Below are positions 23,509 through 38,508 of a DNA stretch of 64,000 nucleotides, one piece after another. Source of the stretch: Streptococcus iniae. Lineage in GTDB: Bacteria > Bacillota > Bacilli > Lactobacillales > Streptococcaceae. The position numbers and the translations under genes are program-made. The stretch spans positions 1,206,001-1,270,000 of the forward strand of contig NZ_CP132230.1 in assembly GCF_030732225.1 (NCBI RefSeq), written 5' to 3'. The first letter of the stretch is position 1; each line of letters opens with the position of its first letter. The notes below the pieces were generated by a model, which saw nothing but the letters and a program-made list of their open reading frames with translations, had not been told where the DNA came from and did no database searches.

Positions 23509-24546
23509 TTAGTGCAACCTTTCAAGCATTCTTTTTTCAGCCCAATAGTAGATAACATATCCTACTACAATTGAGCAAACACTAGCTAAGCCAATATTTA
23601 AAAGTGGCAACATCTTACCGCCAAAGAAATAGACAATCGTTTGTTGTATTGGGAAAGCACACAGGTAAATCCCATAGGAAAGATTTCCTAACTGTCCCAT
23701 TTTTTGACTGATTTGTTTCATTCCAAATGATAAGTAAATAATAAGATATGGAAAAAAAACAAATAAACCGAGCCATGCCATATGTATGACAACTGTAGTT
23801 GTAAATCCAATCAAAGAAATCAGAAAAAATAACTTGGTGATTGGTATATTGTTTTTATAGACGTAATAGCAGACACCAACATAGAACATAAAAACAGGCT
23901 GTGAAAAATTTCTAACCAAAATAAGAAACGGCAATTGTGATAGGTTGATAAAGGTAAATAACACGAATACAGGAAGAATGGTGTAATATAAAACTTTTTC
24001 TTGTGTTAGCTTCAGTTTAAAAGCAGCATAAATTGCCAAATAACATGCAAATTCAACTGGAAGTGTCCATAAGGCACCATTTACGACATTGCCATAAGTA
24101 TTACTAGAAAAAAGGCCTGGTAAACTATGCTTAGGAAGCAATACGGCATTCATAAAATAAAGCCAAGTATCTTTAGACATAAAATAGTTTCCAATGGTTA
24201 GAGTTGTCAGGAAAGGGCCTAAAATAAACACTGTTATTAATACCACAAAAAATAGGGGTGGAAATATTCTGATAAGCCTTGCTTTAAGATAATTGTTAAA
24301 ATTTGGTCTTCTTTCAATACTCCTGTAAATAAGAAAACCACTGGCGATGAAAAAGACTGCCACCGCTAAATTACCAAACGTCAATGTGTTCCCCGATAGA
24401 CTAGCAAGTGGATCCAGATGCTTGCGGCCTAAAGATAAAGGATAGGCATGGCAAATAATAACAAAAAGGGCACAAATAAACCGAATAAGATTTAAATTCT
24501 GACTTTTTTTAGAGACTTGCTCTGCTAAATTATTTTTGATTTTCAT
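23509..24546 (-). CDS. Membrane acyltransferase, acyltransferase-3 family
   Basis: 345 residues with about ten membrane segments. The family start is clear: NLIRFICALFVIICHAYPL carries the conserved catalytic-type Arg and His, and a basic RLIRIFPP follows. There is no C-terminal SGNH domain, so it differs from OatA. The likely job is O-acetylation (or another acyl transfer) of a sugar in the polysaccharide. It overlaps the upstream SDR gene by 17 nt, marking it as the last gene of the locus. Acyl donor and target unknown. Confidence 0.82.
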   Translation of the reverse strand: MKIKNNLAEQVSKKSQNLNLIRFICALFVIICHAYPLSLGRKHLDPLASLSGNTLTFGNLAVAVFFIASGFLIYRSIERRPNFNNYLKARLIRIFPPLFFVVLITVFILGPFLTTLTIGNYFMSKDTWLYFMNAVLLPKHSLPGLFSSNTYGNVVNGALWTLPVEFACYLAIYAAFKLKLTQEKVLYYTILPVFVLFTFINLSQLPFLILVRNFSQPVFMFYVGVCYYVYKNNIPITKLFFLISLIGFTTTVVIHMAWLGLFVFFPYLIIYLSFGMKQISQKMGQLGNLSYGIYLCAFPIQQTIVYFFGGKMLPLLNIGLASVCSIVVGYVIYYWAEKRMLERLH

Positions 24547-25369
24547 AATTCCTTAAAATAGCCTTTATTTTTGTATTATCGCCCCAGATTGCAGGTGAAT
24601 CATACTCTCGTTCTGGAAAAACACCAAATTCTGGTTTGATTGATAAGTGATGCGTTTCAATAAACTGACTAACCTTATCGCCAATAGAAACAGGTTGCCC
24701 TGAGCAACAGTTAATAATACCTTGAATATCATCTTGAACTGAGGCTAGAGCAATTTGATTTGCTAATGCATCAACTTCTAAGAAATCATATTTGTTTTTT
24801 CCAGATACAAATGGAAACGAGGTTTTCCCTTCTTTATCCATTGCAATAATCTTTGAAAAAATAGAATTATTATTTAAGTCATCTCCAAAAATATAGAATG
24901 CTCGTAACCATGTTAGCGTCACATTGGTATCTCTCAATAAGAGAAAAACAGCATGTCTTAAGGTATCTTTTGCAATACCATATAATGACATCGGGTTTGT
25001 TGGTGTATTTTCATCAATTGCTCCTTCAAAATACCCGACTTCATGCATTGTTCCCATTACAGAAAGGTGTTTAATTCCTGAGTCAACCATTTTTTTGATA
25101 AAGGCATAATGATCATAAAGCATTTTCAAATGACTATCAGAATTATGAATAAAACCATCTTTCCATGCAAGATGAATACAAACTTCAGGACTATCTAGCA
25201 GTTCAAAAATATTATCATCTTTAAAAATATCAACTGTTTTGACAATAGCTCTACTATCAATTTTATCTGTTACAAGGTCTGTTGCAACAACATCATGACC
25301 TAAGTCAATCAACCGAGAAACTACATGCCTTCCAATATAACCATTTGCTCCTGTTACTGCAATTTTCAT
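24530..25369 (-). CDS. Extended SDR sugar-nucleotide epimerase/reductase
   Basis: 279 residues; Rossmann start KIAVTGANGYIGRH (GxxGxxG), and a catalytic Tyr-Lys in SLYGIAKD with an upstream Thr in VMGTMHE. It probably makes or reduces a nucleotide sugar for the side chain. dTDP-4-keto-6-deoxyhexose reductases (6-deoxytalose or rhamnose type) and UDP-sugar epimerases are the candidates; sequence reading alone does not decide. It is not the rhamnose enzyme itself, since RmlD is encoded at 38626-39480. Confidence 0.72.
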   Translation of the reverse strand: MKIAVTGANGYIGRHVVSRLIDLGHDVVATDLVTDKIDSRAIVKTVDIFKDDNIFELLDSPEVCIHLAWKDGFIHNSDSHLKMLYDHYAFIKKMVDSGIKHLSVMGTMHEVGYFEGAIDENTPTNPMSLYGIAKDTLRHAVFLLLRDTNVTLTWLRAFYIFGDDLNNNSIFSKIIAMDKEGKTSFPFVSGKNKYDFLEVDALANQIALASVQDDIQGIINCCSGQPVSIGDKVSQFIETHHLSIKPEFGVFPEREYDSPAIWGDNTKIKAILRNYENQK

Positions 25370-25387
25370 TTTAGTTTACCTATGTCC

Positions 25388-26182
25388 TTATATTTTATTG
25401 CTCTTTTCACTTTGTGCATAAACCTTATTAATAAGGTTAGCAATCGGCCTTGGCCAAAAAAGTGATAAAATTTCCAAATCTTCTTTTTGTCTGATGTTAT
25501 CCCCGAGGTTTTTTGAAGTTGCAGACTCTGCATAGATGCGATGCCCTAATAATGCTTTATTAATATATACAAAACTACCATTCTTTTTAGACAAATCAAC
25601 CCAAGTTTTGTAATCACAACTGTTAATAAAGGTAGTATCAAAAATACTTTGACCTGCCAATGGCTTATTGAAAGTTACTGCTGGACAACAAATGGGACAG
25701 CCCAAAGAAAGAATGGCTGATTTAAAAAATTTAGTATTTCTAAAAGATTTAACAAGCATCGGACTGTTCAACAAATGCTTAATCATTAACAGTAAGTTTT
25801 TGCTCTCTTTTTTGCCTAATTTTATTTCATAATAGTTTGTATAACTCATAATCGCGTTTGGATTCTGATTAAGTTCTTTCAAGGTTTCTTCTAAAAACTC
25901 AGCTTCATAAATATCATCTTGGTGAGCTATCGTCACAAGTGGTGTAGGTGCCATATCGTAAGCCCAATTCCAATCCGCTCCTGCATTTTTAGGAGTTGGA
26001 TTTACAAACATTTCTAGTTGGTATTTTTGGCAAATTCCTTCAATAAACGCATTTGGTGTTGATGTTGAAATATAGACATCACTTTTTACAGTCTGATTCA
26101 GCAAAGATACTACTGTATCTTCTAAGTGCTTATTCTCTTTATAGGCACAAATAACAAAACAATGCTCTTTAGCACTAAACAT
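25388..26182 (-). CDS. GT2-family glycosyltransferase
   Basis: 264 residues, A-type Rossmann GT: CFVICAYKENKHLEDTVVSLLNQ start and the metal-binding-type HQDDI (about 89-93). Cytoplasmic, no membrane segment. Member of the side-chain gene group; donor and acceptor unknown. Followed 18 nt later by the SDR gene. Confidence 0.78.
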   Translation of the reverse strand: MFSAKEHCFVICAYKENKHLEDTVVSLLNQTVKSDVYISTSTPNAFIEGICQKYQLEMFVNPTPKNAGADWNWAYDMAPTPLVTIAHQDDIYEAEFLEETLKELNQNPNAIMSYTNYYEIKLGKKESKNLLLMIKHLLNSPMLVKSFRNTKFFKSAILSLGCPICCPAVTFNKPLAGQSIFDTTFINSCDYKTWVDLSKKNGSFVYINKALLGHRIYAESATSKNLGDNIRQKEDLEILSLFWPRPIANLINKVYAQSEKSNKI

Positions 26183-26237
26183 TAAACTTTAACCAACTTT
26201 CTTTAACTTTCCAATTTTCTTTCAAATTAAGAAACTA

Positions 26238-27203
26238 CTATTTCTTACAATAGATTTTAGCAAATAAGGGAAGTAAATGACTTTTTTCTAAACATGAAAA
26301 GATAAACATAATCACCTTAACATTGAAACGTTCAGCTTTTACTTTTGAATTAAATGGGCTCATATGTGATTCCAAATGATTTTCTTTTAGCCAGGACAAA
26401 ATACGTGTATGCTCTTCTAAAAAGACTTTACTTGAAGAAGCTTTCCCTGAAAACAGTAAATAATACATGTATGACTTTTTATATAAAAATGTCACTAGAT
26501 CATTTGGCTTGACGTCTCGATGAATACAAGATAGTAAATAGAGAAAATCAATATCTTTTCTAATCCCTTGATGATCTGTTCGAGTTGTACTAGCAGGATT
26601 CACATAATTATTATAACCTATATAGGACATTGTACTCACATTTTTAGTCTTAGAAAATGCAACTGCATTAAAATGAATGTCTTCCATTGTATAATCAATG
26701 AATTTTAAAGAGTGGCTATCTAAGAAAGCCTTTTTAAAAATTCGCGTGTATGGTGTGGTAATGATATATTGAGACCAATTGTCCCCTGAAGTATCATCCA
26801 ATACAATTTGGCTAACCACTTTCCCTTGATTATCAACCATTCTTAAGCTACTAATAACAATATCATTTCCTGTTTTTACAATTTCTTGATATAAAACGTC
26901 AAGATAGTCAGAATCAAGATAATCATCAATGTCAACAAAGACGATATAGTCACCACTTGCAGCATCTAAACCAGTATTTCTGGCTATTGATGCCCCACCA
27001 TTTACTTGATCGATAACTTTAAAATTAGAATGATGTTCTTCAAATTCTTTTAATAACTGTAAGGAATTATCTTTAGAACCATCATTGACTAAAATTAATT
27101 CAAACTCTTGAAAAGTCTGCTCCAATAAAGATTGAATACATTTAGAAATGGTTTTCTCTGCATTATAAACAGGAACAATAACGGATATTTTGGGGTTTAT
27201 CAT
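26238..27203 (-). CDS. GT2-family glycosyltransferase
   Basis: 321 residues from the ATG at 27203, preferred because AGAGG lies 7 nt upstream; a frame five codons longer starts inside the flippase stop. N-terminal KISVIVPVYNAEKTISKCIQSL and NDGSKDNS are classic GT2, with VFVDIDDYLD as the DxD-like site. The C-terminal part is helical. It probably adds a sugar to the lipid-linked repeat or side chain. Confidence 0.82.
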   Translation of the reverse strand: MINPKISVIVPVYNAEKTISKCIQSLLEQTFQEFELILVNDGSKDNSLQLLKEFEEHHSNFKVIDQVNGGASIARNTGLDAASGDYIVFVDIDDYLDSDYLDVLYQEIVKTGNDIVISSLRMVDNQGKVVSQIVLDDTSGDNWSQYIITTPYTRIFKKAFLDSHSLKFIDYTMEDIHFNAVAFSKTKNVSTMSYIGYNNYVNPASTTRTDHQGIRKDIDFLYLLSCIHRDVKPNDLVTFLYKKSYMYYLLFSGKASSSKVFLEEHTRILSWLKENHLESHMSPFNSKVKAERFNVKVIMFIFSCLEKSHLLPLFAKIYCKK

Positions 27204-27214
27204 AATTTCCTCTT

Positions 27215-28474
27215 TCATTTTAGTGACAATAATCCATTTGATTTAGCATGTTCATCTTTGATAAGTTGTCTATATTCATAGTAAAAATACCCATAGATCA
27301 GTGAGAAATGAAGCAACATAATCATAAAGTATGCATAAATTGCACCATGAATATGATAAGCTGTGACTAAGTGTTTTGCTAAAAATAACCCGACTAGGGA
27401 ACTCGTTGCAAATAGGAATATTTGAGGGGTAGTTTTTCTCATGGTTATTAGAACTGTTGAGTAAACAGATGCACAGGAATAAAAGAGAGCACCCGCAATC
27501 ACAATTAATAAGTCAAAGCGATAAGCTGAAACGTCGACACCATAAAGAAGATTCAAAACAGGTATTCCTAAAAGAAAGGCCCCTAAAAGAGCAATGATAT
27601 CAATCATAAGTAAAGCCAGACTAATCTTTGTAGTTGTTTTTTTCAACTCTTTGTATTTGTGATTGTAAAAATATTCAATTAACTGATTTAACAAAGGTTG
27701 AACAATGTATTGACCGCATAAGCTAATGATGGTTGCAGGCATAACAATGATATTAAAGACGGCCTGAAATTGATTGGCCAATTGCTCATCAATAACATAT
27801 TTTGAAACATTAACAATATAGATTGATAGGAATGAAAAAATAAAGATGGAAAATCCTTTTTTAAACAACGCTAAGGTATTCTTTACCTCTATTTTTTCAA
27901 AGGTCATTATTTTGTTGACATTTGGAAAGTCATAGCTAAAAATAAAAATAAGGTTAACAAAAATAATTGATAGACAAGCAAGTACTAGATTTTTTGTTAA
28001 TAAATCAACTAGCAAGAATAGAAATACAGCCACAAACGACTTCCAAAATAAGGAAATCCCTGCAATGTAGAGTAACTGTTTTTTTTGCAAATACCCATAC
28101 AAAGTGTCGCTAAATGCTTCTAATGCCTTATAGATCGTCAAAGCTAAAATCACAATCGATTTTTCCAGATGATAACCTTTGGCATACACATAGACAATTG
28201 CAACAAGTACCATCAGTGAGGCTGTCCAAACTTTATGCACCAAGTATTCTGAATCACTTGTTTCATTATAAATATCAGAAACTTGAAAAGTTCTTCCAGC
28301 ATAAAGTCCAATAATGAACCACAGTGATGCTAAAGCAAAAGAAAAACCAAATACACCCGCATCATTAATTCCATTTATTCTGCTTACAATGATAAGAAAA
28401 AATAAGGAATTAAAGGAATTGAAAGTTATCCCTAAAGTGTTCCAAAAAGCATTTTTTTTAATATTATCAATCAC
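27215..28474 (-). CDS. Wzx-type polysaccharide flippase (MOP superfamily)
   Basis: About 419 residues with 12 predicted membrane segments, in the pattern of lipid-linked oligosaccharide flippases (start VIDNIKKNAFWNTLGITFNSFNS). The GTG at 28474 gives an 8-nt overlap with the upstream stop (GTGATTGA); a longer frame begins with a TTG at 28501. It corresponds in position and class to GacK, the flippase of the group A carbohydrate side-chain pathway. Substrate is probably an undecaprenyl-linked sugar or short glycan made by its neighbours. Confidence 0.8.
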   Translation of the reverse strand: MIDNIKKNAFWNTLGITFNSFNSLFFLIIVSRINGINDAGVFGFSFALASLWFIIGLYAGRTFQVSDIYNETSDSEYLVHKVWTASLMVLVAIVYVYAKGYHLEKSIVILALTIYKALEAFSDTLYGYLQKKQLLYIAGISLFWKSFVAVFLFLLVDLLTKNLVLACLSIIFVNLIFIFSYDFPNVNKIMTFEKIEVKNTLALFKKGFSIFIFSFLSIYIVNVSKYVIDEQLANQFQAVFNIIVMPATIISLCGQYIVQPLLNQLIEYFYNHKYKELKKTTTKISLALLMIDIIALLGAFLLGIPVLNLLYGVDVSAYRFDLLIVIAGALFYSCASVYSTVLITMRKTTPQIFLFATSSLVGLFLAKHLVTAYHIHGAIYAYFMIMLLHFSLIYGYFYYEYRQLIKDEHAKSNGLLSLK

Positions 28475-28826
28475 GCTTGTTCTCACTTTCAAGTTTAGCA
28501 ATTCTACGGTTTGATAGTGATAACTCTTGTGTTAAAGCAGTCAATTGTTCTCTTTGTTTTGAAAGTTGAACCGTTTGTAAAAACGTAATAACCAGTAAAA
28601 ATAAAACTGCTAACGTTAGCAAAAAATTTGAAATGAGGGCAAAACCGAACATCTTAGTTAAAAATGCAGGAATCACGTCAAATATCGAGATAATAATCAT
28701 TATGATTGCAATAACAATCCACATAAATGCTTGATCAAACAAAATATTATTTTTATTAATATTTCTAAAAATAAAATACAAGAATAGAATTGATGTCACC
28801 AACATAACAAGTGATAAAATGGACAT
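28467..28826 (-). CDS. DUF2304 small membrane protein (GacJ-like)
   Basis: 119 residues from the ATG at 28826, which overlaps the upstream stop (TAATG) with AAGGAG before it. Three hydrophobic segments (about 1-22, 32-52, 62-88), then a charged helical tail ending ESENKRD. DUF2304 proteins pair with polyprenyl-phosphate sugar synthases; GacJ, which stimulates GacI in S. pyogenes, is the model. The GacI-like gene is immediately upstream. Confidence 0.82.
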   Translation of the reverse strand: MSILSLVMLVTSILFLYFIFRNINKNNILFDQAFMWIVIAIIMIIISIFDVIPAFLTKMFGFALISNFLLTLAVLFLLVITFLQTVQLSKQREQLTALTQELSLSNRRIAKLESENKRD

Positions 28827-29551
28827 TATTCCGTCTCCTTCATAAATGCTGCAATTAAGATAGATGAACACACTTCCACCATATAACGAATGGATTTAAT
28901 GGCAGTAATTGATGATTCTCCACCTTGTCGTTCAAACATGTTGGCAGGGGCTTCTACCACACGATACTTTCGTTTCAAAAGATGAACTGTAGACTCAGGT
29001 TCAGGATACTTTCGTGGGTAGCGTTTGGCAAACTCTTTGATAACAGGTCTATTAGCCAAACGGTAGCCAGATGTTGTATCAAATACACGTTTTCGTGTTG
29101 TTAACTTTATCATCATTGAAATAATTGTAATCCCGAATCGTCTCATAAAACTTGTCTGAAACTCTGATTTATCCTCACCAACAAATCGTGAACCAATAAC
29201 CATATCTGCCCTATCCTTAATAATAGGCTGCACCAAATGATTTAAAGAATGAATATCATGTTGCCCATCCCCATCAAATTGTACAGCAATATCATAATCA
29301 TGCTGCAAAGCATATTTATAACCAGTTTGAACAGCCCCTCCAATACCTAAGTTCATAACAAGATGGACAGCATTCAAACCATTTTCTTCTATAATTTGCT
29401 TGGTTTTATCTGTTGAACCATCGTTAATCACAATGTAATCCAAGTCAAAATCGACTTGCTCTTTATAATTATTAATGTTGGTTACTGTTTGTAATATACT
29501 TGCCTCTTCATTATAGGCCGGTATAATAATTAAAACACGTTTATGATTCAT
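28826..29551 (-). CDS. GT2 polyprenyl-phosphate sugar synthase (GacI-like)
   Basis: 241 residues starting MNHKRVLIIIPAYNEEASI, with the dolichyl-phosphate-mannose-synthase-like motifs VINDGSTDKT, VQFDGDGQHD and TTSGYRLANR. It is predicted to load a sugar onto undecaprenyl phosphate on the inner membrane face (GlcNAc in the GacI case). Coupled by TAATG to the DUF2304 gene, as gacI to gacJ. The sugar is inferred. Confidence 0.82.
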   Translation of the reverse strand: MNHKRVLIIIPAYNEEASILQTVTNINNYKEQVDFDLDYIVINDGSTDKTKQIIEENGLNAVHLVMNLGIGGAVQTGYKYALQHDYDIAVQFDGDGQHDIHSLNHLVQPIIKDRADMVIGSRFVGEDKSEFQTSFMRRFGITIISMMIKLTTRKRVFDTTSGYRLANRPVIKEFAKRYPRKYPEPESTVHLLKRKYRVVEAPANMFERQGGESSITAIKSIRYMVEVCSSILIAAFMKETE

Positions 29552-29599
29552 TGTATTCTTTCTATAGAAAATCGTCATTTATCTCAAAATTTCCATTAA

Positions 29600-30910
29600 T
29601 TAAACCCAATAATATAACATTATCAAGATATTGTATATCACATAGTTAAAAACAATAGTTCCAAGAACTAAGGGTACAAATAGTTTTTTATTTAAATAAA
29701 AGTTAAAATAGTTTTTCAAACTCATAAATAAAGGAAATAAATATAAAAGGAATGGTGTAAAATATCTTCCTTGTGCACCAACAGATATATTGGCATTTTC
29801 ACCTAACATTTTGGGAGTCCAAGCAAAGTACATTGTAATAATAATAACCACTACTTGAAGAAGAACCATTATAAAAGATGAGATACCAACTTCTTTAGTT
29901 GTCACATCATTTAAATGACTTTGAGCTTCCTGTAAGAAAACTATGGTAAGAACAAAAATATTAAGCCAAATTACCCATGCTGGCATTTGAATAACCAACA
30001 TACCAAAAAAGCCAAAGACACCTGTGGTTAGAACATTATTTAAATCAGGATTCAAATTATTAACAAAAAGGGTATTGAAAATCATATGAATAAAATGAAG
30101 CACACTTGTTCTTTTAGAAAGAACAAAAGTCAATACAATTAAACATAATAGCGTTAAGAGCACTACTATTTTCAAACGATTTCGTTGCCAAAATTCTAAT
30201 ATCGGGTTTAATTTATTAATGTATGGCCCTTCAAATCTAAAATTAATAAATCCAATCAAGGGGAAAAGCAGCAAGTTATTCGGTTTCACTGCATACAATA
30301 AAATAATTAATAAGAGATAACCGAAAAGTTTTTTCCAAGTAACTTTTTTGTCAATCATTAAGTTAATATAGCAAACAAAAAAACTGGCAATTGCAACAAA
30401 ATTGAGAACGTCATAAGAAAGTGATCCCGCCTGATGTATCATCATTGGAAGTAATGAAATAAACATCAAGGTATACTTTCCAACTTTAATATACTTAATC
30501 AGATAATAAATTGCCAATATATAGATAAAAGCATTTGTAATCCTACCGGCTGTAATAATAACTCCGGCTGAAGGGTAAATCATTTTTCCGATTACCATAC
30601 CAATCAGCTGAGGGATATGCCTAATATTTACAATACTAAATTTTAATCGCGTTTTTTCTTTCGAAAAATCAATTTTTTGTGTAAAGAATTTCTGATAACC
30701 TTTAAAATTGATGGCTTTATCAGCTGGCTGCTTATTTTCAATACCAGTCCCTTGAAGCCAGGTATGTTTTTGAGGTTTTTCTTGATAGACAATATCCCAA
30801 GCAAAATGGGCATGAACCCGCTCATCAGGAACTTGTGTTACTGGCATAATCAAAATTGATAAACTAATCAATAGTGACGCCAGTAATAAATACATTTTTT
30901 CAACCTTCAT
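29600..30910 (-). CDS. DUF2142 polytopic membrane protein, candidate GT-C glycosyltransferase
   Basis: 436 residues with about 11-12 membrane segments. Just after the first helix an extracellular loop carries TQVPDERVHAHFAWDI, resembling the PxDE-H motif of DUF2142 and GT-C enzymes, whose acidic residues lie outside the membrane. It occupies the role of GacL (the side-chain transferase using undecaprenyl-phosphate sugar) but is not recognisably the same family. Very A/T-rich. The start may be the ATG at 30910 or one five codons in. Confidence 0.68.
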   Translation of the reverse strand: MKVEKMYLLLASLLISLSILIMPVTQVPDERVHAHFAWDIVYQEKPQKHTWLQGTGIENKQPADKAINFKGYQKFFTQKIDFSKEKTRLKFSIVNIRHIPQLIGMVIGKMIYPSAGVIITAGRITNAFIYILAIYYLIKYIKVGKYTLMFISLLPMMIHQAGSLSYDVLNFVAIASFFVCYINLMIDKKVTWKKLFGYLLLIILLYAVKPNNLLLFPLIGFINFRFEGPYINKLNPILEFWQRNRLKIVVLLTLLCLIVLTFVLSKRTSVLHFIHMIFNTLFVNNLNPDLNNVLTTGVFGFFGMLVIQMPAWVIWLNIFVLTIVFLQEAQSHLNDVTTKEVGISSFIMVLLQVVVIIITMYFAWTPKMLGENANISVGAQGRYFTPFLLYLFPLFMSLKNYFNFYLNKKLFVPLVLGTIVFNYVIYNILIMLYYWV

Positions 30911-30945
30911 TACTGTTTTAAACTCCCAAAAATTCTATTAATAGC

Positions 30946-31926
30946 CTAAATCTCTTTTCTTTTTTCCAATGAGTATTTTGACTGTTCACTTGTTAAATCA
31001 ACCTGATTAGCCAGCCTCATTCCTCGCCATTTCTCAAGATGGAAGAGAGGATTGATGGCCAACCAATACAATTTGCGTTTCCATGAATAATCCTTATCAG
31101 AAATAATGTTCATGGCATCTTTTACGGATGCTTTTGCAGCTTGTCTCAATACTGTTACCATTGAAATCTTGGTGGTTACACCACTATTTAATCGAACATT
31201 ATAAGTTTCATCAAATATACGACTCTTATACTCTGAGAGTAAAATATCGTTAGAGTGTTCAACAACTGCTTGGCTGTTATAAGCTTTCATAAAACCTGCA
31301 TCAAGAATGTCCTTACCATACTCATAATCTTCTGAATATGCAACATGACGGTAGCCAATTTGATTAACCAAAAAGTCTCTTGGTGCTGCCGAGCAGACAT
31401 CACTATAAAAGGACTCTTTTGTATATTTGCCTTTCAAATTTTCATCATCACGTGTCCAGATTGTCAGTGCATCTGCAACACCTTGCTCATTAAAAACAGC
31501 GTTAATATCATATTTCATTGCAGGAAAACAGCTAAGTCTTGGTTTTTGTTTCCCAAGTACGGCAACTATCTTATCATTAAATTCAAAAGGTTTTACCATT
31601 TCACTCAACCAATTATCATTGGCAGGAACTGCATCCTGACTCAGATAAACCATATATTCTGCACTTGATTCTTGCGCAGCCATTTGACGTGTCGCACCGT
31701 GAGAATAGTCTGATTTTTTTAATTGAATCAGTTTTAAGTTACCATATTTCTCAGCAAATTTCTCAATAATCGCAACTGAATTGTCTTTTGATTCCGAATT
31801 TGTAATGATAAGATCCCATAAAAAATCGGTTTTTTGGGCATACAAAGCTGTTAGCGTTTCTTCTAAATGATCATTTTCACCATTATAAACTGGAATAAAA
31901 ACAGTTGCCTTTAGCTTATCAGTCAT
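30946..31926 (-). CDS. GT2 rhamnosyltransferase-type enzyme
   Basis: 326 residues; ATVFIPVYNGENDHLEETL, TNSESKDNS, then the SDYSHGATRQMAA and YLSQDAVP motifs typical of bacterial rhamnosyltransferases. Overlaps the preceding gene by 8 nt. Likely extends the rhamnan backbone with dTDP-L-rhamnose. Linkage not predictable. Confidence 0.8.
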   Translation of the reverse strand: MTDKLKATVFIPVYNGENDHLEETLTALYAQKTDFLWDLIITNSESKDNSVAIIEKFAEKYGNLKLIQLKKSDYSHGATRQMAAQESSAEYMVYLSQDAVPANDNWLSEMVKPFEFNDKIVAVLGKQKPRLSCFPAMKYDINAVFNEQGVADALTIWTRDDENLKGKYTKESFYSDVCSAAPRDFLVNQIGYRHVAYSEDYEYGKDILDAGFMKAYNSQAVVEHSNDILLSEYKSRIFDETYNVRLNSGVTTKISMVTVLRQAAKASVKDAMNIISDKDYSWKRKLYWLAINPLFHLEKWRGMRLANQVDLTSEQSKYSLEKRKEI

Positions 31927-33145
31927 TGATTACCTCACGTCGAATGATTTCTTCAACTTTTTGATAACTTGCTTCCCAAGAAATCGTATCGTATTTTTGA
32001 CTAATTTCATTAGCATAGTCATCAATATTAGCGCGCTCAACAGCTTTACAAAGTTCTTCTGCTAAAGCTACAGGATAAGCTTCTGCATAGGCGATGTCAT
32101 CATTGTCACCTAAGACCATTGTATTATTGTCTCCTGAATTCATCACTGGAATACAACCCGCTACCAATAATTCTAGTGGTAATAAAGAAACATTTGTTAA
32201 AGATAGTACTAAGCAGGCAACACTTTCATGATAAATATCTGCTAGTTCTTCTTTATTTAATATTCCTCTATCAATAAAGTCAAAAGGGATATCGTAGTTA
32301 GACATATCTTGACCAAAAAATTCAATATCATACTCTGGATGTTTGTCTTTAAAAATCTTAAGGGCCATCACCCCAAGTTCAAAACCTCGGCGTTCTGTAT
32401 GAGCACGGGCATAAAAAGCAATTTTCTTTTTCTTTTTAAGTACTTGTTTAGGTTTATAAATATCAGTATCTGCCCCAAAATCAAAGAAATCGGCATCCAT
32501 TTGGTAATCTTTTAATTTATGGGTTAACCACTTCCCAGCTGTCACACCGTAAAATCCAAATTTATAAGTAGCTTCTGCTAATTTATAGCGTGATCCTACT
32601 CCATAGAAAATCGGCTCGAAATCTTGAACGAAATAAAATTTATGAAGGTTCTCACCTTGTAAATTAAAGACGGCATAGGCCGTTTCCCAACTGGTGGCAA
32701 AGACCAAATCTTGATTTTTAAACTCTTCTAATCGATCAACCTTGACATCAATACCGTATGCCTTTGAGAAAATTTCTTGAGCTTCTTTTGGAGACTGGTC
32801 AATAGTATTGTTATGATAGATGTAAAAAGTGATATGATGCCCTTTAGATTGTAAATACTTTACAAATCGTGAAATAGTGGTATGCCCACCACCACCTTTT
32901 CCAACAGGTGGGGAAACCCAAGCTATATTCAGCTTCTCTTTTGAAATTTTAGAAGGTTTTTGATAAGGATTATTGATGTAATCAGCTTTAGCAATATCTT
33001 CTAATTGTGGCATAATTGGGATTCGATTTAAATCGATTTTGCCAGCTTCTTGTTGATGAGAACCACCTTGTAAACGATGACGAATTTTTCTCAAGGTAGC
33101 ACGACCACCTTCATCTTTATAACTTCTGATAATTTTTGTAATCAT
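31919..33145 (-). CDS. GT4-like rhamnosyltransferase (WsaF-type)
   Basis: 408 residues, GT-B fold: N-domain with WVSPPVGKGGGGHTTISRFV, a central FVQDFEPIFYGVGSRY, and a C-domain with AFYARAHTERRGFELGV and LSLTNVSLLPLELLVAGCIPV. These motifs are shared with WsaF-like rhamnan synthesis enzymes. It appears to replace the larger RgpE/RgpF-type enzymes of the S. mutans and S. pyogenes loci. Confidence 0.75.
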   Translation of the reverse strand: MITKIIRSYKDEGGRATLRKIRHRLQGGSHQQEAGKIDLNRIPIMPQLEDIAKADYINNPYQKPSKISKEKLNIAWVSPPVGKGGGGHTTISRFVKYLQSKGHHITFYIYHNNTIDQSPKEAQEIFSKAYGIDVKVDRLEEFKNQDLVFATSWETAYAVFNLQGENLHKFYFVQDFEPIFYGVGSRYKLAEATYKFGFYGVTAGKWLTHKLKDYQMDADFFDFGADTDIYKPKQVLKKKKKIAFYARAHTERRGFELGVMALKIFKDKHPEYDIEFFGQDMSNYDIPFDFIDRGILNKEELADIYHESVACLVLSLTNVSLLPLELLVAGCIPVMNSGDNNTMVLGDNDDIAYAEAYPVALAEELCKAVERANIDDYANEISQKYDTISWEASYQKVEEIIRREVIND

Positions 33146-33171
33146 TTTTTCTCCTAAGTTAATGAACTTAT

Positions 33172-34437
33172 TTAATGGGTTTTATTTGGGAAAATAAAAG
33201 CTTTTACTTTCCATAGGACTTGACAGAATTTAAACATGCGAGAAGCATTAATAGAAGCAAGCTCTTGATTTTTCGCCTCTAACTGTTGCAACAAGTCTTC
33301 TCTTTCACTTTTCATTTGTTTTTCTATGCTTTCGAGACGGTGAATACCTTCCCATAAGTTAGCGACATCATTTTCCAAACCAACAATCTTAGACTGAATT
33401 AACAAATTAATAGCATTGATGTATTCAATATCTTGTTTTTCTAATAAATCAATGGGGTGATCACTTGATTCAAGGCTTGAAAAAATACGACTCATATTGT
33501 TTGAAATAGTATATCGGTTTCGATATTCTTCAATATGTTTTTTTTGAAAGGATTGAGCACTTTGGTAGCCAGCTAGTAGGTCAGATACGATTTCTTGAGA
33601 CGTTTTACGACATTTTTCAAAACCTCTGCCTGAAAAATTATTAAAAGCTGCTTGCTCAATATTTTCAGCCGTCAAATAGCCCGGTCCTTTAAAATGATCA
33701 TAAACATAGATTGGTTTTCCCATAGCTAAACAATATTGAACGTTTTTTCCAATACCAATAACACAATCATAACCCGCAATCAAATCTGGACTGACTAATT
33801 GATAATGATCAGACCAAACACCAAAAAAATCAACTTTTATCCCTTTGGCATTTAAGAGAGTTTTTATGCCCATAACTTCTTTAGGTGGATGATTTGATAT
33901 GACCAGTATCGATTCTGGAGCTGTTTTCTGCTCATGCACTTGAAGCGCGTATTCTTCAGGAACCGGATTGGGATAGTACTGTAAATTAGGAATTCCCTTA
34001 AAAAATCGTTTTAAATTTTTCTGAACAATTTCCTCAGAAATTGCTAAAGTCGCTGATGACAATTTTTCTTCTAAGCCATAAATATAAGGTTGTTCCAAAA
34101 CATGCTCTTTTAAAGCCGCCATGTGTATGAAAATAAATTTAGGGCACTTTTCTTGTTTTTTTCCTAAAGCATTAACAATGGCCGAAGGAATGATATTTTG
34201 CGCTGAAAAAATCACATCATAGCAATTAATATCAAATGGATAGTTTATATCATCAATAACAGAAATATCACGTTTTTGAAATTCTTCAATCATCGGAGAA
34301 CTTGCTAAAAACGTAAATACCTCGACCTTGGCCCCCTCTTTTTTTAAATAGGTAGCAAGTTCTAGAATATTGATTTCTGCACCACTAAAGCCTCTAAGCC
34401 AAATATGAGTTAATAGAAATCGTTTCCCTTTGTACAT
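33172..34437 (-). CDS. GT4-like glycosyltransferase with C-terminal coiled coil
   Basis: 421 residues from the ATG at 34437 (CGGGG 8 nt upstream; two codons longer is possible). The N-domain has HIWLRGFSGAEINILELATYL; the middle resembles GT-B enzymes (PILVISNHPPKEVMG-like strand, MGKPIYVYDHFKGPGYL). Residues about 345-400 form a heptad-rich coiled coil, so it may scaffold or measure the chain as well as transfer sugar. Donor unknown; it sits among rhamnan genes. Confidence 0.68.
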   Translation of the reverse strand: MYKGKRFLLTHIWLRGFSGAEINILELATYLKKEGAKVEVFTFLASSPMIEEFQKRDISVIDDINYPFDINCYDVIFSAQNIIPSAIVNALGKKQEKCPKFIFIHMAALKEHVLEQPYIYGLEEKLSSATLAISEEIVQKNLKRFFKGIPNLQYYPNPVPEEYALQVHEQKTAPESILVISNHPPKEVMGIKTLLNAKGIKVDFFGVWSDHYQLVSPDLIAGYDCVIGIGKNVQYCLAMGKPIYVYDHFKGPGYLTAENIEQAAFNNFSGRGFEKCRKTSQEIVSDLLAGYQSAQSFQKKHIEEYRNRYTISNNMSRIFSSLESSDHPIDLLEKQDIEYINAINLLIQSKIVGLENDVANLWEGIHRLESIEKQMKSEREDLLQQLEAKNQELASINASRMFKFCQVLWKVKAFIFPNKTH

Positions 34438-34456
34438 CCCCATATCCCCGTTTATT

Positions 34457-35623
34457 CTAATGTAAGTTAACTTTTGTTTCAGGTTTCCAATAAATATTAT
34501 TACCTGATTTACCTCTATTGATTAATTCAAAATCACAAATGCCGCTAAACATAGCATACTCTTTTGAGCGGTCTCGTGATTTTACCCCAAATTCTGTTGT
34601 AAATTTCCCGTTAGGATAAATGTTTTGAATGGCAAAATCAATAGAGATTTTTGCATTTGAGACCTCTAGTTGCCCATCAATTTCTTCATCAGAAACCCAA
34701 CGGTATAAGAGTTCGCCTGTATCCTTGTGAATTGTAAAGGTTAAGACAGGATCTTCAATAATATCTTCAAAATGAACTTCAAAATTAAAATCTAGTGTTT
34801 TATTATCTCTATTGAAAAACTGAGAAGACAATGAAATGCCATTATTTTCAGTCTTCTTATTTGATTCTTTAGCAACATCTAAACCATTCAATTGCTTGTA
34901 AATCTGTGAGATTTCAAGTGGTGTTCCAACTTCCACTTGATGCCCCTTATCTATCAACATTGCTTTATTACAAAAGCGTTGAACTTGTTCCATAGAATGT
35001 GTTACCAAAATAACTGTTTTATTGTCGCGTTTAAGTTGCGCAAAATAATCAAAACATTTACGTTGAAAAGCCTCATCTCCTACGGCTAAAACTTCATCCA
35101 AAATTAAGATATCACCTTTGGCCTTAATAGCAATTGAAAACGCCAGACGAACTTGCATTCCCGAAGAATAATTTTTCAATTTTTGATCCATGAACTCATG
35201 AAGCTCTGCAAAAGCTACAATATCATTGTACATGGCTTCAACTTCCTCTCGAGAAAAGCCCAACAATGCGCCATTCATATAAACGTTTTCACGACCTGTT
35301 AACTCTGGGTTAAAACCAACTCCCAACTCGATAAATGGAACCAACTTCCCGTCAACAGTGACTTTTCCTTTTTCTGGATCGTAAATTTTTGAAATGATTT
35401 TTAGTAAGGTTGATTTCCCAGAGCCGTTACGACCAACAATCCCGAAAAAGTCACCCTCTTCCACCTCAAAGGAAACATTATCTAATACGTGTTGTTCAGT
35501 ATATCCTTTTATCCCTTTGAAATAATTAACCAGACTAGTTCTCAGACTATGACTAGCCTCTGTTGGCAGTTTAAAGGATTTGCTTACTGAATCAACTGAT
35601 AAAACAACTTTTTTTTCTGACAT
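34457..35623 (-). CDS. rgpD: Polysaccharide ABC exporter, ATPase subunit (RgpD/GacE-like, Wzt type)
   Basis: 388 residues. The N-terminal ATPase has Walker A GRNGSGKST (about 64-72), signature YSSGMQVRLAFSIA and Walker B DILILDEVLAVGDEAF. The additional C-terminal domain (about 255-388) is beta-rich, like the Wzt C-domain that recognises the growing polymer. With RgpC it exports the lipid-linked rhamnan. Its start overlaps the permease stop by 1 nt. Confidence 0.92.
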   Translation of the reverse strand: MSEKKVVLSVDSVSKSFKLPTEASHSLRTSLVNYFKGIKGYTEQHVLDNVSFEVEEGDFFGIVGRNGSGKSTLLKIISKIYDPEKGKVTVDGKLVPFIELGVGFNPELTGRENVYMNGALLGFSREEVEAMYNDIVAFAELHEFMDQKLKNYSSGMQVRLAFSIAIKAKGDILILDEVLAVGDEAFQRKCFDYFAQLKRDNKTVILVTHSMEQVQRFCNKAMLIDKGHQVEVGTPLEISQIYKQLNGLDVAKESNKKTENNGISLSSQFFNRDNKTLDFNFEVHFEDIIEDPVLTFTIHKDTGELLYRWVSDEEIDGQLEVSNAKISIDFAIQNIYPNGKFTTEFGVKSRDRSKEYAMFSGICDFELINRGKSGNNIYWKPETKVNLH

Positions 35624-36429
35624 TAAAGAATCTCCGCAAATTTCTTAGCATTTCTTTTAAAAACAGTGTAACCTACTATAAATGAGCCAACTGAGATGAT
35701 AATCGGAATTAGTGTAAACAATTTGTTATCAAAGATATCCCAGTTAATGGTTGCTCCTGAATAGACAATAAAGTGACGTAATTCTTGAATAATTTGTGCT
35801 AATGGATTCATCATCATCACTTTAGCAATTGATAAATGCCCTCTTTGAATAATATAGGTGATGGAATAAATGATTGGTGTAGAATACATTCCAGCTTGCA
35901 ACATAACTTCCCAAATCGGCCCCATATCTCTATACTTGACAAATAAGGTTGCTAAAATAAAGGCAACTCCTGCTGCAAATAAAAACAACTCAATAAACAA
36001 TGGCAATAAAATCAAAATACCAAAGCTTGGCTTAACACCATTAATTAATGCAAACGCAAAAACCACAATAATATTAATAAAATAATTAATTGAAGCTCCT
36101 ACTACTGAGGAAATAACAATAATCTCTTTAGGGAAATTGATTTTTCGTAACAAATCTCCCCTTGAAACAATGGATAACATTCCCATGTTTGTTGCTTCAG
36201 TGAAAAAATTCCAAGTGACCATCCCTAAAAGTAAACTTACAGCATAGTGAGGGGTTCCATCATCAAATTTCAAAAAGCGAACAAATACTAAATACATAAT
36301 TGTAAATAAAAGCATGGGTTTCAAAATTGACCACAGATGCCCGATAAAGCTTCCTTGATAACGTAATTTAAAGTCCGTTCTTACCATTTCTCTTAATAAA
36401 ATGCGATTTTTAACGGTTAGAAAATTCAT
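35623..36429 (-). CDS. rgpC: Polysaccharide ABC exporter, permease (RgpC/GacD-like, Wzm type)
   Basis: 268 residues, ABC-2 family with six membrane segments; the entry LREMVRTDFKLRYQGSFIGHLWSILKPM and the late YSTPIIYS and MMNPLAQIIQ are the usual landmarks. Partner of the ATPase directly downstream. Confidence 0.93.
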   Translation of the reverse strand: MNFLTVKNRILLREMVRTDFKLRYQGSFIGHLWSILKPMLLFTIMYLVFVRFLKFDDGTPHYAVSLLLGMVTWNFFTEATNMGMLSIVSRGDLLRKINFPKEIIVISSVVGASINYFINIIVVFAFALINGVKPSFGILILLPLFIELFLFAAGVAFILATLFVKYRDMGPIWEVMLQAGMYSTPIIYSITYIIQRGHLSIAKVMMMNPLAQIIQELRHFIVYSGATINWDIFDNKLFTLIPIIISVGSFIVGYTVFKRNAKKFAEIL

Positions 36430-36431
36430 TT

Positions 36432-37364
36432 CTATTGTCTCCTGTATCCAAATTTGGTAATAATTAGTGAGCTAAAAACAAGGGTGTGAAAAGCTCTGTT
36501 TTTCTTGAAACCATATTTTTTCAAAGTTATTATTCGTTGTTTCAAGTTTTTATCTAAAAGTGTCACATAGTCTTGAACCATATCGTAATCTTTTGTTGAT
36601 AAGTCATGATCAAGTAACAATTTTGCTTGTTTTTGGCTTGAAGTAATCAGCCACCAATACTTATCAATTAATTTATGAGGTCTAATCCAATTTTTCATAC
36701 GTTTAGACCAAGTTCTAGCCCCTAAAACATTACTATCGTGTTGACGATATAGTTCTGTTGGATGATCTAAATAGACGAGATTCCCTAAACCAGAAGCGAG
36801 TAAGGCCAGGTACCAGTCATGCATTAAGAGGTTTTCAGTTACTGTCCACTCTTTAGCTAAAGCATGGTTAATCATCATAGTGCCGCCTGTAACAGTGTTT
36901 TCCGTTAGTTCTTCCACTAAACTGGTATTAGCATGATGTGATTGTGTTTTAATCATGCTGTCATTAGTCACTTCAAGTTTTTGATTGACAATTTTTAAAT
37001 CAGTATAAATCAATAATGGTTTCTTTAACTCATAACGATCACTTTCTGCTAATGTTAGAGCTAACTTATCTTCCAGCCAAACATCATCTTGATCACTAAA
37101 GAAATAAAAGTCTGCCTCTTCAAACTTCACTAAAGTATGAAAGTTTTTAACAACTCCAAAGTTCTGACGATTATTTGGGTTAATAAAACGAATACGAGAA
37201 TCGGTTTTAGCAAATTCCTGAATAATTTGAGGTGTCCGGTCTGTGGATCCATCATCTCTAATTAACAAATTCCAATCCTTTACCGTTTGTTTTTGGATAC
37301 TTTCAATTTGTTGAGCCAGAAATTTTTCGCCATTATATGTGGACATTAAAATATTAATTTTCAT
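36432..37364 (-). CDS. rgpB: Rhamnosyltransferase, GT2 (RgpB/GacC-like)
   Basis: 310 residues; KINILMSTYNGEKFLAQQIESI, IRDDGSTDRTPQI, FFSDQDDVWLEDKL and HDWYLALLASG match the streptococcal RgpB/GacC enzymes, which add rhamnose to the priming unit. Start overlaps rgpA by 11 nt. Length agrees with GacC. Confidence 0.9.
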   Translation of the reverse strand: MKINILMSTYNGEKFLAQQIESIQKQTVKDWNLLIRDDGSTDRTPQIIQEFAKTDSRIRFINPNNRQNFGVVKNFHTLVKFEEADFYFFSDQDDVWLEDKLALTLAESDRYELKKPLLIYTDLKIVNQKLEVTNDSMIKTQSHHANTSLVEELTENTVTGGTMMINHALAKEWTVTENLLMHDWYLALLASGLGNLVYLDHPTELYRQHDSNVLGARTWSKRMKNWIRPHKLIDKYWWLITSSQKQAKLLLDHDLSTKDYDMVQDYVTLLDKNLKQRIITLKKYGFKKNRAFHTLVFSSLIITKFGYRRQ

Positions 37365-38508
37365 TTAAAAATAAAGCCTCATATTCTCCTACAATTTTTT
37401 TCCAAGTGTATTCTTCTTCAATAATCCGCTTAGCTTCTTTACCCAAATCTTCGTAATGACTTCTTTGATCAACACTCTCAATCAATTGAGCTAAATCATT
37501 AGCGGTTTTTGTCCAGTAAAGGGCTGCCGTTTGGGCAACTGATTTGTTAAAATCAACCCCAAAAACTAAATTAAGGTTCGTATGTGCAAGAGCCTCAAGC
37601 AAACCAGGATTAGTCCCTCCAACTTCGTGACCGTGAATATAGGCAAAGGCATTCTCGCGAATATATATCAGTAATTCTTTGTCATAAACAGTTCCTACAA
37701 ACTTAATTCTAGGATCTTTATCACATAACGTTATGGTTCTTAATTTTTCAAAATAAGGATTGCCTTGGTGATTCGTAATAATGACCAGATCACGACTTGT
37801 CTTAGATAACATGAATTCACGAATGATGGTTTCATAATTATTTTCCGGAACAAACCGACCCAAAACCAAATAATAATCTTTTTCGCTAAGTTTATTTTGG
37901 TAAAAATAATTTCTAACAGACTCATCTTCGAAAGCTAATTGTGACTTACCTGTTTCAGTTCCATAGGCAATAAAAGTTGTTTTAGCACTTTTATAGTTTT
38001 GGTTGAGGTATGCCTCAATACCAATGTTATCTGAAATCACCAAGTCAGCCAATTGACACATTTTCTTTTCTGAAAATTTCAAATAAGTTTGAACAGGTTT
38101 TGACCATTTTGAGCGTTTCCATTCTAAACCATCCGGATTAATAAAGAATAAACCGTTGCGTTTTTTTATGGCTTTAACAAATGGAGACATAAAGGCACCT
38201 ATGGTATTGCCTAAGATGTAAAAAATAGGATTTTTTATGTCATGTTGGACAATATACGTTAAGGCTTTTTTGATAGCTAACATATCATATGCTATAACAC
38301 GAGCTGGTCCTAATTTTGGTGGAGCAATATAAAAACAGCGGGCCCCCTTATAATTGGAGTCCTTTTTTCCTTTTTCATCAGATAAGCAAGCCACATGATA
38401 AGTAATATCGTGACTCACTTGATGATTAATAAGCTCCTCAACAAAGGTTTCAAATCCACCATATTGAGCAGGTAATCCTCTACTTCCAATAATAAAAACG
38501 TCACGCAT
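37354..38508 (-). CDS. rgpA: Rhamnosyltransferase (RgpA/GacB-like, DUF1972 plus GT4)
   Basis: 384 residues. The N-terminal DUF1972 domain starts MRDVFIIGSRGLPAQYGGFE and is followed by a GT4 C-domain (VLGRFVPENNYETII, HGHEVGGTNPGLLEALA). In S. pyogenes the equivalent GacB puts the first rhamnose on GlcNAc-PP-undecaprenol. First gene of the main polysaccharide operon, with its own extended -10 promoter. Confidence 0.92.
   Translation of the reverse strand: MRDVFIIGSRGLPAQYGGFETFVEELINHQVSHDITYHVACLSDEKGKKDSNYKGARCFYIAPPKLGPARVIAYDMLAIKKALTYIVQHDIKNPIFYILGNTIGAFMSPFVKAIKKRNGLFFINPDGLEWKRSKWSKPVQTYLKFSEKKMCQLADLVISDNIGIEAYLNQNYKSAKTTFIAYGTETGKSQLAFEDESVRNYFYQNKLSEKDYYLVLGRFVPENNYETIIREFMLSKTSRDLVIITNHQGNPYFEKLRTITLCDKDPRIKFVGTVYDKELLIYIRENAFAYIHGHEVGGTNPGLLEALAHTNLNLVFGVDFNKSVAQTAALYWTKTANDLAQLIESVDQRSHYEDLGKEAKRIIEEEYTWKKIVGEYEALFLNEN

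What the first reader, a model, noticed from the sequence alone, without database searches (positions are those of the whole stretch)
23509..38508. Rhamnose-polysaccharide locus with a non-standard backbone and side-chain gene set
Seen: rgpA, rgpB, rgpC and rgpD are in the usual order, but the following three genes are GT4/WsaF-like, GT4 with coiled coil, and GT2 enzymes rather than recognisable RgpE/RgpF. They are followed by a DUF2142 protein, a GT2-DUF2304 pair, a flippase, two GT2s, an SDR and an acyltransferase. Known: S. pyogenes uses GacI/GacJ/GacK/GacL for GlcNAc side chains, with GacH adding glycerol phosphate. Inference: a different serogroup-type polymer with an ABC-exported rhamnan and a flippase-dependent, possibly acetylated side chain. 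No GacH-like glycerol-phosphate transferase is present here, so that decoration is probably absent or encoded elsewhere.
Basis: partly seen in the sequence, partly recalled or inferred. Interest (0 to 1): 0.75.

Follow-up and report, generated by a model that had tools for sequence, protein, structure and literature searches.

The report
Rhamnan locus with swappable chain-end cassette
This streptococcal cell-wall sugar locus uses a group-G-like rhamnose backbone machine instead of the usual one, and comparison with relatives suggests that the gene next to the exporter marks the finished end of the chain while the exporter's own tail reads that mark, which would give a simple rule for how these bacteria set and export their wall polymer.

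Summary
The locus is real and read almost correctly: rmlD-rgpA-rgpB-rgpC-rgpD, a coiled-coil GT-B glycosyltransferase, a WsaF-like enzyme, a GT2, then a DUF2142/WpsA/DUF2304/flippase/GT2/GT2/SDR/acyltransferase side-chain set. RgpF is not found in the whole genome. It is not unique: 18 of 284 Streptococcus genomes, its own included, carry the WsaF-like gene at 72% identity or more. The backbone half matches S. canis at 67-91%; side-chain genes match at 29-42% or not at the BLAST threshold. That suggests a Lancefield-group-G-type backbone with a replaced side chain. The unexpected result lies at rgpD. Its C-terminal domain folds like the cap-reading domain of Wzt, and its type follows the next gene in 15 of 15 RgpF-less loci: coiled-coil GT (8), pyruvyl transferase (4) or LicD (3). 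Slot type changes at least five times on an 18-locus WsaF+GT2 tree, and one near-identical locus pair differs chiefly by this cassette. I infer that the coiled-coil GT caps the chain and RgpD reads the cap, as WbdD/Wzt does in O antigens. No chemistry exists. A GacH homologue elsewhere is split in two.

The parts
38626..39480 (-). rmlD, dTDP-4-dehydrorhamnose reductase
   Evidence: TIGR01214 270 bits over cut-off 224
37354..38508 (-). rgpA/gacB-type beta-1,4-rhamnosyltransferase (first rhamnose on GlcNAc-PP-Und)
   Evidence: NF046071 588.9 bits over cut-off 500; DUF1972
36432..37364 (-). rgpB, GT2 rhamnosyltransferase
   Evidence: PF00535; 68% to S. canis, 59-73% to other loci
35623..36429 (-). 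rgpC, ABC exporter permease
   Evidence: PF01061; 91% to S. canis; relative in 168 of 284 genus genomes at E<=1e-40
34457..35623 (-). rgpD, ABC exporter ATPase with a C-terminal carbohydrate-binding-type domain
   Evidence: PF00005; match to A. aeolicus Wzt 8dku_A, E 4.4e-59, query 42-367; Pfam Wzt_C 21.9 bits, below its cut-off 30.4, S. canis homologue 32.6 bits, above it
34457..34888 (-). RgpD C-terminal domain (residues 246-388), proposed reader of the chain-end cap
33172..34443 (-). coiled-coil GT-B glycosyltransferase in the slot after rgpD; proposed chain terminator/capping enzyme
33193..33438 (-). C-terminal helix 336-400 plus helix 402-417 of that enzyme; proposed ruler and membrane tail
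   Evidence: AF2 model
31919..33145 (-). WsaF-like GT4, proposed backbone rhamnosyltransferase
   Evidence: Pfam WsaF_C and WsaF_N over cut-off; WsaF 2x0d_A E 2.2e-13
30946..31926 (-). GT2, constant partner of the WsaF-like gene, proposed backbone rhamnosyltransferase
   Evidence: PF00535; follows wsaF in 18 of 18 loci, window included
29600..30910 (-). DUF2142 membrane protein, proposed GT-C that moves the side chain onto the backbone
   Evidence: PF09913 91 bits, cut-off 30; named relatives in S. suis, S. equinus and enterococci
28826..29578 (-). WpsA/GacI-like GT2, makes the polyprenyl-phosphate sugar that starts the side chain
   Evidence: 5mlz_A E 1.2e-11, ArnC-type 9bhc_C E 6.9e-11; 76% to L077 and L099 homologues
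28467..28871 (-). DUF2304, WpsB/GacJ-like activator (longest frame; true start may be internal)
   Evidence: PF10066 78 bits
27215..28501 (-). flippase for the lipid-linked side chain
   Evidence: 28-31% to proteins of other rgp loci; no Pfam match of its own
26238..27218 (-). GT2, side-chain elongation
   Evidence: PF00535 122 bits
25388..26182 (-). GT2, side-chain elongation
   Evidence: PF00535 38 bits; 38-40% full-length homologues in several rgp loci
24530..25369 (-). SDR, nucleotide-sugar epimerase/reductase
   Evidence: PF01370 82 bits; of the 120 listed of 6730 relatives, those with names are from Holdemanella and Erysipelatoclostridium at 62-66%
23509..24546 (-). acyltransferase family 3, possible O-acylation
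   Evidence: PF01757 98 bits, cut-off 31

Best explanation
The locus makes a peptidoglycan-linked rhamnan of the RgpF-less 'WsaF class' with an oligosaccharide side chain. Proposed order of events. RgpA adds the first rhamnose to GlcNAc-PP-undecaprenol; RgpB, the WsaF-like enzyme and the GT2 polymerise the backbone (inferred from families and from the constant WsaF+GT2 pair). The coiled-coil GT then puts a distinct sugar on the growing end and stops the chain; its 65-residue helix spaces the capping site from the membrane-bound polymerase and so helps set length. The C-terminal domain of RgpD reads that cap and admits the chain to the RgpC/RgpD exporter. The enzyme and the reading domain are one exchangeable cassette: relatives carry a pyruvyl transferase or a LicD enzyme with a matching different RgpD tail on the same WsaF backbone. 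Separately, the WpsA-like GT2 with DUF2304 starts a side chain on undecaprenyl phosphate, two GT2s extend it, the flippase turns it over, DUF2142 attaches it outside, and the acyltransferase may decorate it. Shown: gene content, no RgpF found, the linked variation, the cassette exchange, predicted folds. Inferred: every biochemical step.
For: No RgpF in the genome. Of 168 genus genomes with RgpC, 149 have RgpF only, 15 a full-length WsaF-like gene only, 3 both and 1 neither, a 74%-complete genome (lists compared by hand). CTD cluster equals slot-1 cluster in 15 of 15 RgpF-less loci: GT 8, pyruvyl 4, LicD 3; of the other 102 loci examined 101 have a fourth CTD family and one is a CTD singleton. 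Between types CTD identity averages 11-16% against 78-79% for the ATPase half, 74-76% for WsaF and 70-72% for the GT2. At least 5 changes of slot-1 type on the 18-locus WsaF+GT2 tree (least possible 3), and the GT type is rejected as one clade, p-AU 7e-44. L087 and L085: 92.7% DNA identity up to rgpD codon 211, no match at E<=1e-5 through CTD and slot-1, 93.6% again from 27 bp into wsaF. CTD fold as Wzt cap-binding domains. Two members tested of each alternative slot-1 family are PS_pyruv_trans and LicD over their cut-offs. C-terminal proline/glycine-free runs have medians of 56-74 in slot-1 families 0, 1, 3, 4, 6 against a control median of 27 and 90th percentile of 42. In published systems the cap stops elongation and certifies the chain for the CBD (PMC9445017, passages), and terminators pair a catalytic domain with a coiled-coil ruler and membrane helix (PMC11231755, passages). 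S. mutans polymer has minor non-reducing-end GlcNAc (PMC11754754, passages).
Against: No chemical or genetic data. In 22 of 117 loci (slot-1 families 2, 5, 7) the gene after rgpD is RgpF-like or a fragment, without the coiled-coil signal, so a terminator of this kind is not universal. In the RgpF class one broad CTD family goes with several slot-1 families; the link there is weaker (partial r 0.571, 97 loci, 0 of 2000 permutations), and an RgpF-class RgpD aligns to Wzt only over its ATPase half. The ATPase half also follows slot-1 type to a degree: its nearest neighbour is of the same type in 15 of 15 loci, against 12 of 15 for WsaF and 11 of 15 for the GT2. The strict tail motif, written after seeing the tails, is in only 1 of 8 coiled-coil GTs (loose 6 of 8; controls 2 and 52 of 965). 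The heptad score is home-made. The RgpD model is poor overall (mean pLDDT 50.6, 8 sequences) with only the CTD usable. CTD1 shows no profile similarity to the other CTDs. A pyruvyl cap in Klebsiella O1 is not needed for export or length (PMC11231755).
Confidence: 0.65

Rival explanations
1. The slot-1 enzyme modifies or builds every repeat unit of the backbone rather than its end, and the RgpD tail recognises the repeating structure.
For: GT, LicD and pyruvyl enzymes can all act along a chain (general knowledge). CTD3 (LicD type) and CTD0 (RgpF type) are related by profile (97.2% probability) although their slot-1 enzymes differ, so a CTD may read something broader than the cap. The review says the group G polymer has a different disaccharide backbone (PMC4931226, passages).
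Against: Three unrelated enzyme families in one slot, each with a long C-terminal Pro/Gly-free helix-like tail, the hallmark of terminators (PMC11231755). The closest fold matches of the RgpD tail are Wzt CBDs, one of them solved with a chain-end cap sugar (PMC9445017).
Confidence: 0.22
2. The CTD and slot-1 gene travel together only because they are adjacent DNA; there is no functional coupling.
For: They are physically contiguous in all 15 loci, so one recombination tract covers both. The ATPase half tracks the type too, though weakly.
Against: The left break falls inside rgpD near codons 211-224, at the end of the ATPase half, in both pairs examined, and the right break near the start of wsaF. 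With at least five changes of type among 18 loci, mismatched CTD/slot-1 pairs would be expected, and none is seen among them.
Confidence: 0.1
3. An ordinary RgpE/RgpF-type locus whose genes diverged beyond recognition.
For: rmlD-rgpA-rgpB-rgpC-rgpD are canonical.
Against: The RgpF profile finds nothing in the genome but rings in 153 of 284 genus genomes. The WsaF-like gene matches WsaF families instead. L083 carries an RgpE-like GT2, RgpF and the WsaF+GT2 pair side by side, so they are different genes.
Confidence: 0.03

Closest known systems
Lancefield group G carbohydrate locus (S. canis, S. dysgalactiae subsp. equisimilis)
   Same: Genome G013, identified as S. canis by a 98.8% match of its coiled-coil GT, has the same rmlD-rgpA-D-ccGT-WsaF-GT2 half at 67-91% and the same neighbours sufT and pepT. 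Its 15 genes and 7 glycosyltransferases by my count agree with the review's SDEG750-764 range and 'seven glycosyltransferases' (PMC4931226, passages).
   Different: Side-chain half: S. canis has a different DUF2142 protein, a sulfatase-family GacH-like protein and a GalE-like epimerase (name by eye); the window has one more GT2, an SDR and an acyltransferase.
RgpF-class loci (S. mutans SCC, S. pyogenes GAC, L. lactis rhamnan)
   Same: rmlD, RgpA, RgpB, RgpC/RgpD export and an Und-P-linked side-chain system (PMC10821137, PMC11754754, passages).
   Different: No RgpF and no RgpE-like GT2 after rgpD; coiled-coil GT + WsaF-like + GT2 instead.
Cap-dependent Wzm/Wzt O-antigen export with WbdD-type terminators
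   Same: ATPase with C-terminal carbohydrate-binding fold, and a terminator-like enzyme with a long helical tail (PMC11231755, PMC9445017, passages).
   Different: Gram-positive rhamnan; the catalytic domain here is a GT-B transferase; cap not shown.
GacI/J/K/L and WpsA/B/G/J side-chain systems
   Same: GT2 + DUF2304 + flippase + membrane transferase set of functions (PMC10821137, passages).
   Different: DUF2142 in place of GacL/WpsJ, plus SDR and acyltransferase.

Membership tests
Streptococcal ABC-dependent rhamnan (rgp/gac) loci | rmlD, RgpA-type beta-1,4-RhaT, RgpB, RgpC/RgpD in order | tested here: met
RgpF-class rhamnan locus | RgpF (PF05045) | tested here: not met
   0 matches in the own genome, 153 of 284 in the genus
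Lancefield group G-type locus | backbone gene order and identity to a group G species | tested here: met
   8 genes 67-91% to G013, identified as S. canis; that S. canis carries group G antigen is recalled
Lancefield group G-type locus | same side-chain gene set | tested here: not met
   29-42% or below the BLAST threshold; no GacH-like or GalE-like gene in the locus
Lancefield group G-type locus | reaction with group G serum | not testable with these tools
   needs cells; the group G reference sequence SDEG750-764 itself was not fetched
Cap-dependent Wzm/Wzt export (WbdD paradigm) | carbohydrate-binding domain at the C-terminus of the ATPase | tested here: met
Cap-dependent Wzm/Wzt export (WbdD paradigm) | terminator enzyme with catalytic head, coiled-coil ruler and membrane tail | tested here: inconclusive
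   architecture present in the model; ruler and membrane roles not testable
Cap-dependent Wzm/Wzt export (WbdD paradigm) | CBD specificity matches the cap enzyme | tested here: inconclusive
   linked variation in 15 of 15 loci, tree and swap; binding not measured
Cap-dependent Wzm/Wzt export (WbdD paradigm) | a chemically distinct chain end | not testable with these tools
   needs end-group analysis
WsaF rhamnosyltransferase family | WsaF_N and WsaF_C domains | tested here: met
   37.0 and 55.6 bits, cut-offs 27; the N-terminal match covers profile positions 82-145 of 156 only
GacI/J-WpsA/B side-chain initiation | GT2 polyprenyl-phosphate sugar synthase beside a DUF2304 activator | tested here: met

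The most novel reading that the evidence does not exclude
Streptococcal cell-wall rhamnans are made by a cap-dependent, length-measuring export system of the WbdD/Wzt kind, in which a 'terminator plus reader' cassette (last part of rgpD plus the next gene) is exchanged between species as a unit and brings in chemically unrelated chain ends: a sugar, a pyruvate ketal or a LicD-type phosphate group. RgpE/GacF of the classical loci would be the sugar-type terminator of the same scheme.
Probability: 0.6. Interest if true: 0.78.

Novelty: new variant of a known kind. Interest (0 to 1): 0.62.

Why it matters
The passages read leave open what RgpE/GacF-position genes do: PMC6802508 (passages) calls the precise role of each backbone GT, GacF included, unknown, and PMC10821137 (passages) has RgpE only 'possibly' ending the chain. 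If the slot after rgpD encodes a chain terminator read by the RgpD tail, length control and export of streptococcal wall polymers become testable with single gene removals, chain ends become predictable from sequence, and the natural cassette swaps supply ready-made pairs. Three searches for this idea showed 20 of 41 papers, 20 of 137 and 5 of 5; none of the titles or abstract starts listed ties RgpD or RgpE/GacF to Wzt-type cap reading in streptococci. The unlisted papers were not seen, and the library holds open-licence papers only.

Tried and rejected
Searched in vain or set aside: (1) ccGT across 398 genomes of the phylum hit only the own genome and G456, where the match is a domain of an 840-aa protein near flagellar-type genes (so named by eye) and no neighbour matched RgpC or RgpD convincingly; no independent test there. 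(2) PDB sequence searches with the ccGT profile (E<=0.001) and with DUF2142 (E<=0.1) found nothing; DUF2142 as GT-C stays an inference from position. (3) SDR: the 27 PDB matches are mostly generic nucleotide-sugar epimerase/reductase relatives, substrate undetermined. (4) That a GacH-like gene is missing from the genome: rejected, a homologue exists elsewhere but is split. (5) Species of the window: not determined; its own records are masked. (6) The chemical structure of the group G antigen was not found in the text seen (figures not held), so no linkage is claimed for the WsaF-like enzyme. (7) Co-variation counts: the 117 loci are the window plus 36 and 80 stretches fetched, out of 168 RgpC-bearing genomes; near-duplicates were left out by choice and the RgpC place list was cut at its end. 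L108 (an extra piece beside L093) was dropped. The 15-locus set excludes the 3 loci with both RgpF and WsaF; these have the common CTD family. The permutation tests ignore relatedness, hence the tree, in which L083 is a long branch and the RgpE-bearing L083 and RgpF-bearing L079 and L081 were labelled as one group.


Full report
OBSERVATION. Pfam and NCBIfam give RmlD, RgpA (curated Cps2T beta-1,4-rhamnosyltransferase match), RgpB, RgpC, RgpD, a GT-like protein with only a sub-threshold Pfam match, a WsaF-like protein, a GT2, DUF2142, GT2, DUF2304, a protein without a match (flippase by similarity to other loci), two GT2s, an SDR and an acyltransferase. Two details differ: the coiled-coil GT comes directly after rgpD, before the WsaF-like gene, and rmlD belongs to the locus.

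WHERE IT STANDS AMONG STREPTOCOCCI. The genome is 2.18 Mb in one contig. RgpF is not found in it but is in 153 of 284 genus genomes. The WsaF-like protein has relatives in 30 of 284 genomes at E<=0.001, of which 18, the own genome included, match over nearly the whole length at 72-100%; the other 12 are weak (21-30%). The coiled-coil GT is in 8 of 284. RgpC is in 168 of 284 at E<=1e-40. Comparing the lists by hand, 149 of these have RgpF only, 15 the full-length WsaF-like gene only, 3 both and 1 neither (G218, 74% complete); one further genome (G060) has RgpF without RgpC. So WsaF+GT2 looks like an alternative elongation set. The GT2 follows the WsaF-like gene in 18 of 18 loci, the window included.

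A GROUP G-TYPE BACKBONE. Genome G013 is taken as S. canis because its coiled-coil GT is 98.8% identical to a protein named from that species. Against the window its genes are rmlD 86, rgpA 73, rgpB 68, rgpC 91, rgpD 90, ccGT 67, WsaF 87 and GT2 82%, with the same flanks sufT (83%) and pepT (80%); of the side-chain genes three match at 29-42% and the rest fall below the threshold of that comparison, although both loci have DUF2142 and DUF2304 proteins. Flank-level identity of the backbone half and replacement of the side-chain half is the simplest reading. The S. canis locus has 15 genes and 7 nucleotide-sugar-type glycosyltransferases by my count. A review gives the group G cluster as SDEG750-764 with seven glycosyltransferases and a different disaccharide backbone (PMC4931226, passages). 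That S. canis is a group G species is recalled. The group G reference sequence itself was not fetched, so this link is likely, not shown.

THE RgpD TAIL AND THE NEXT GENE. In a set of 117 loci (the window plus stretches; 168 genomes have RgpC) I took the gene directly downstream of rgpD as 'slot 1' and split RgpD at residue 245. Slot-1 proteins fall into eight clusters and the RgpD tails into five. In the 15 RgpF-less loci the pairing is one to one: coiled-coil GT with tail 1 (8), a 400-409 aa protein with tail 2 (4), a 347 aa protein with tail 3 (3). Pfam, run on two members of each, makes the second polysaccharide pyruvyl transferase (51-53 bits, cut-off 25.3) and the third LicD (108-109 bits, cut-off 22.6). 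Of the other 102 loci, 101 have tail 0 and one a singleton. Between types the tails share 11-16% on average, while the ATPase half shares 78-79%, WsaF 74-76% and the GT2 70-72%. Partial correlation of tail identity with slot-1 type, holding WsaF, RgpC, the ATPase half, or WsaF+RgpC+GT2 constant, is 0.94-0.98, reached in 0 of 5000 label shuffles each; shuffles ignore relatedness. The ATPase half itself tracks the type to a degree (nearest neighbour of the same type in 15 of 15; WsaF 12, GT2 11 of 15). On a tree of WsaF+GT2 from 18 loci (the 15 plus the 3 that also have RgpF), slot-1 type changes at least five times, where three is the least possible, and the GT type is rejected as a single clade (p-AU 7e-44).

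A NATURAL EXCHANGE. L087 (GT type) and L085 (LicD type) share rgpC at 98%, the ATPase half at 90%, WsaF at 95% and GT2 at 95%. Their DNA is 92.7% identical up to codon 211 of rgpD, then has no match at E<=1e-5 through the rest of rgpD and the whole slot-1 gene, and is 93.6% identical again from 27 bp into wsaF. L074 (GT) and L077 (pyruvyl), more distant (75-77%), show the same pattern with breaks at codon 224 and 105 bp into wsaF. So the exchanged unit is the RgpD tail plus the next gene.

MECHANISM. In Wzt systems a cap on the growing end stops elongation and certifies the chain for export by the CBD (PMC9445017, passages), and terminators carry a coiled-coil ruler and membrane helix (PMC11231755, passages). 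RgpE is already suspected of capping in lactococci (PMC10821137, passages; PMC9746298, parts 1-3 of 7 read), and S. mutans polymer contains minor non-reducing-end GlcNAc (PMC11754754, passages). I therefore propose that the slot after rgpD is a terminator and that the RgpD tail is its reader. For the side chain the four-component scheme applies: WpsA-like GT2 and DUF2304, GT2s, flippase, and DUF2142 as the external transferase (inferred).

LIMITS. Nothing here is chemical. The 22 loci without a coiled-coil slot-1 protein do not fit a universal terminator slot. In the RgpF class the coupling is weaker (partial r 0.571, 97 loci, 0 of 2000 permutations). Adjacency alone could carry the two parts together; the break inside rgpD and the absence of mismatches argue otherwise. 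The K. pneumoniae O1 pyruvyl cap is not needed for export (PMC11231755).

REST OF THE PATHWAY. The genome also has an RmlC relative, two PF00953 matches, one of which is probably MraY and the other RgpG/TagO (recalled family knowledge), and three LCP proteins. A GacH-like gene lies near 1.71 Mb, outside the locus, in two parts (35-55% identity to the S. canis protein) with a transposase-like ORF between them, so named by eye. The parts were looked at separately and not joined.

VERDICT. A new variant of a known kind of locus, whose wider interest lies in the terminator-reader cassette.

Noticed in passing
L199:5930-9615 (own genome, about 1.71 Mb): GacH-like (LTA-synthase family) gene in two parts with a transposase-like ORF (L199:8012-8791, named by eye) between them; matched stretches are 35-55% identical to the S. 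canis locus protein.
   Followed up: partly
L083 (G059): Carries an RgpE-like GT2, RgpF and the WsaF+GT2 pair in one locus, so the two elongation sets can coexist.
   Followed up: partly
L087 (G160, contig length 2218630): A coiled-coil GT whose longest contig has this length is named 'Streptococcus pneumoniae' by its source yet sits in a full rhamnan locus; the record may be misnamed.
   Followed up: no
window 24530-25369: The SDR's named relatives among the 120 listed are in Holdemanella and Erysipelatoclostridium at 62-66%, hinting at transfer from gut Firmicutes.
   Followed up: no
L100, L147, L148: Slot 1 holds a short (286-289 aa) RgpF-like protein; the one scanned (L100) matches only the first half of the RgpF profile.
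   Followed up: no
window 21563-22051: EbsA-family gene (PF17255, 168 bits), second gene beyond the acyltransferase end of the locus.
   Followed up: no
G000:C1 about 863-867 kb (L001, L198): An LCP protein near a CoA_binding_3 (sugar-transferase type) protein, a likely capsule locus in the same genome.
   Followed up: no
window 3075-3148 and 20023-20146: L21 and L20 ribosomal leader RNAs (Rfam, over gathering score).
   Followed up: no
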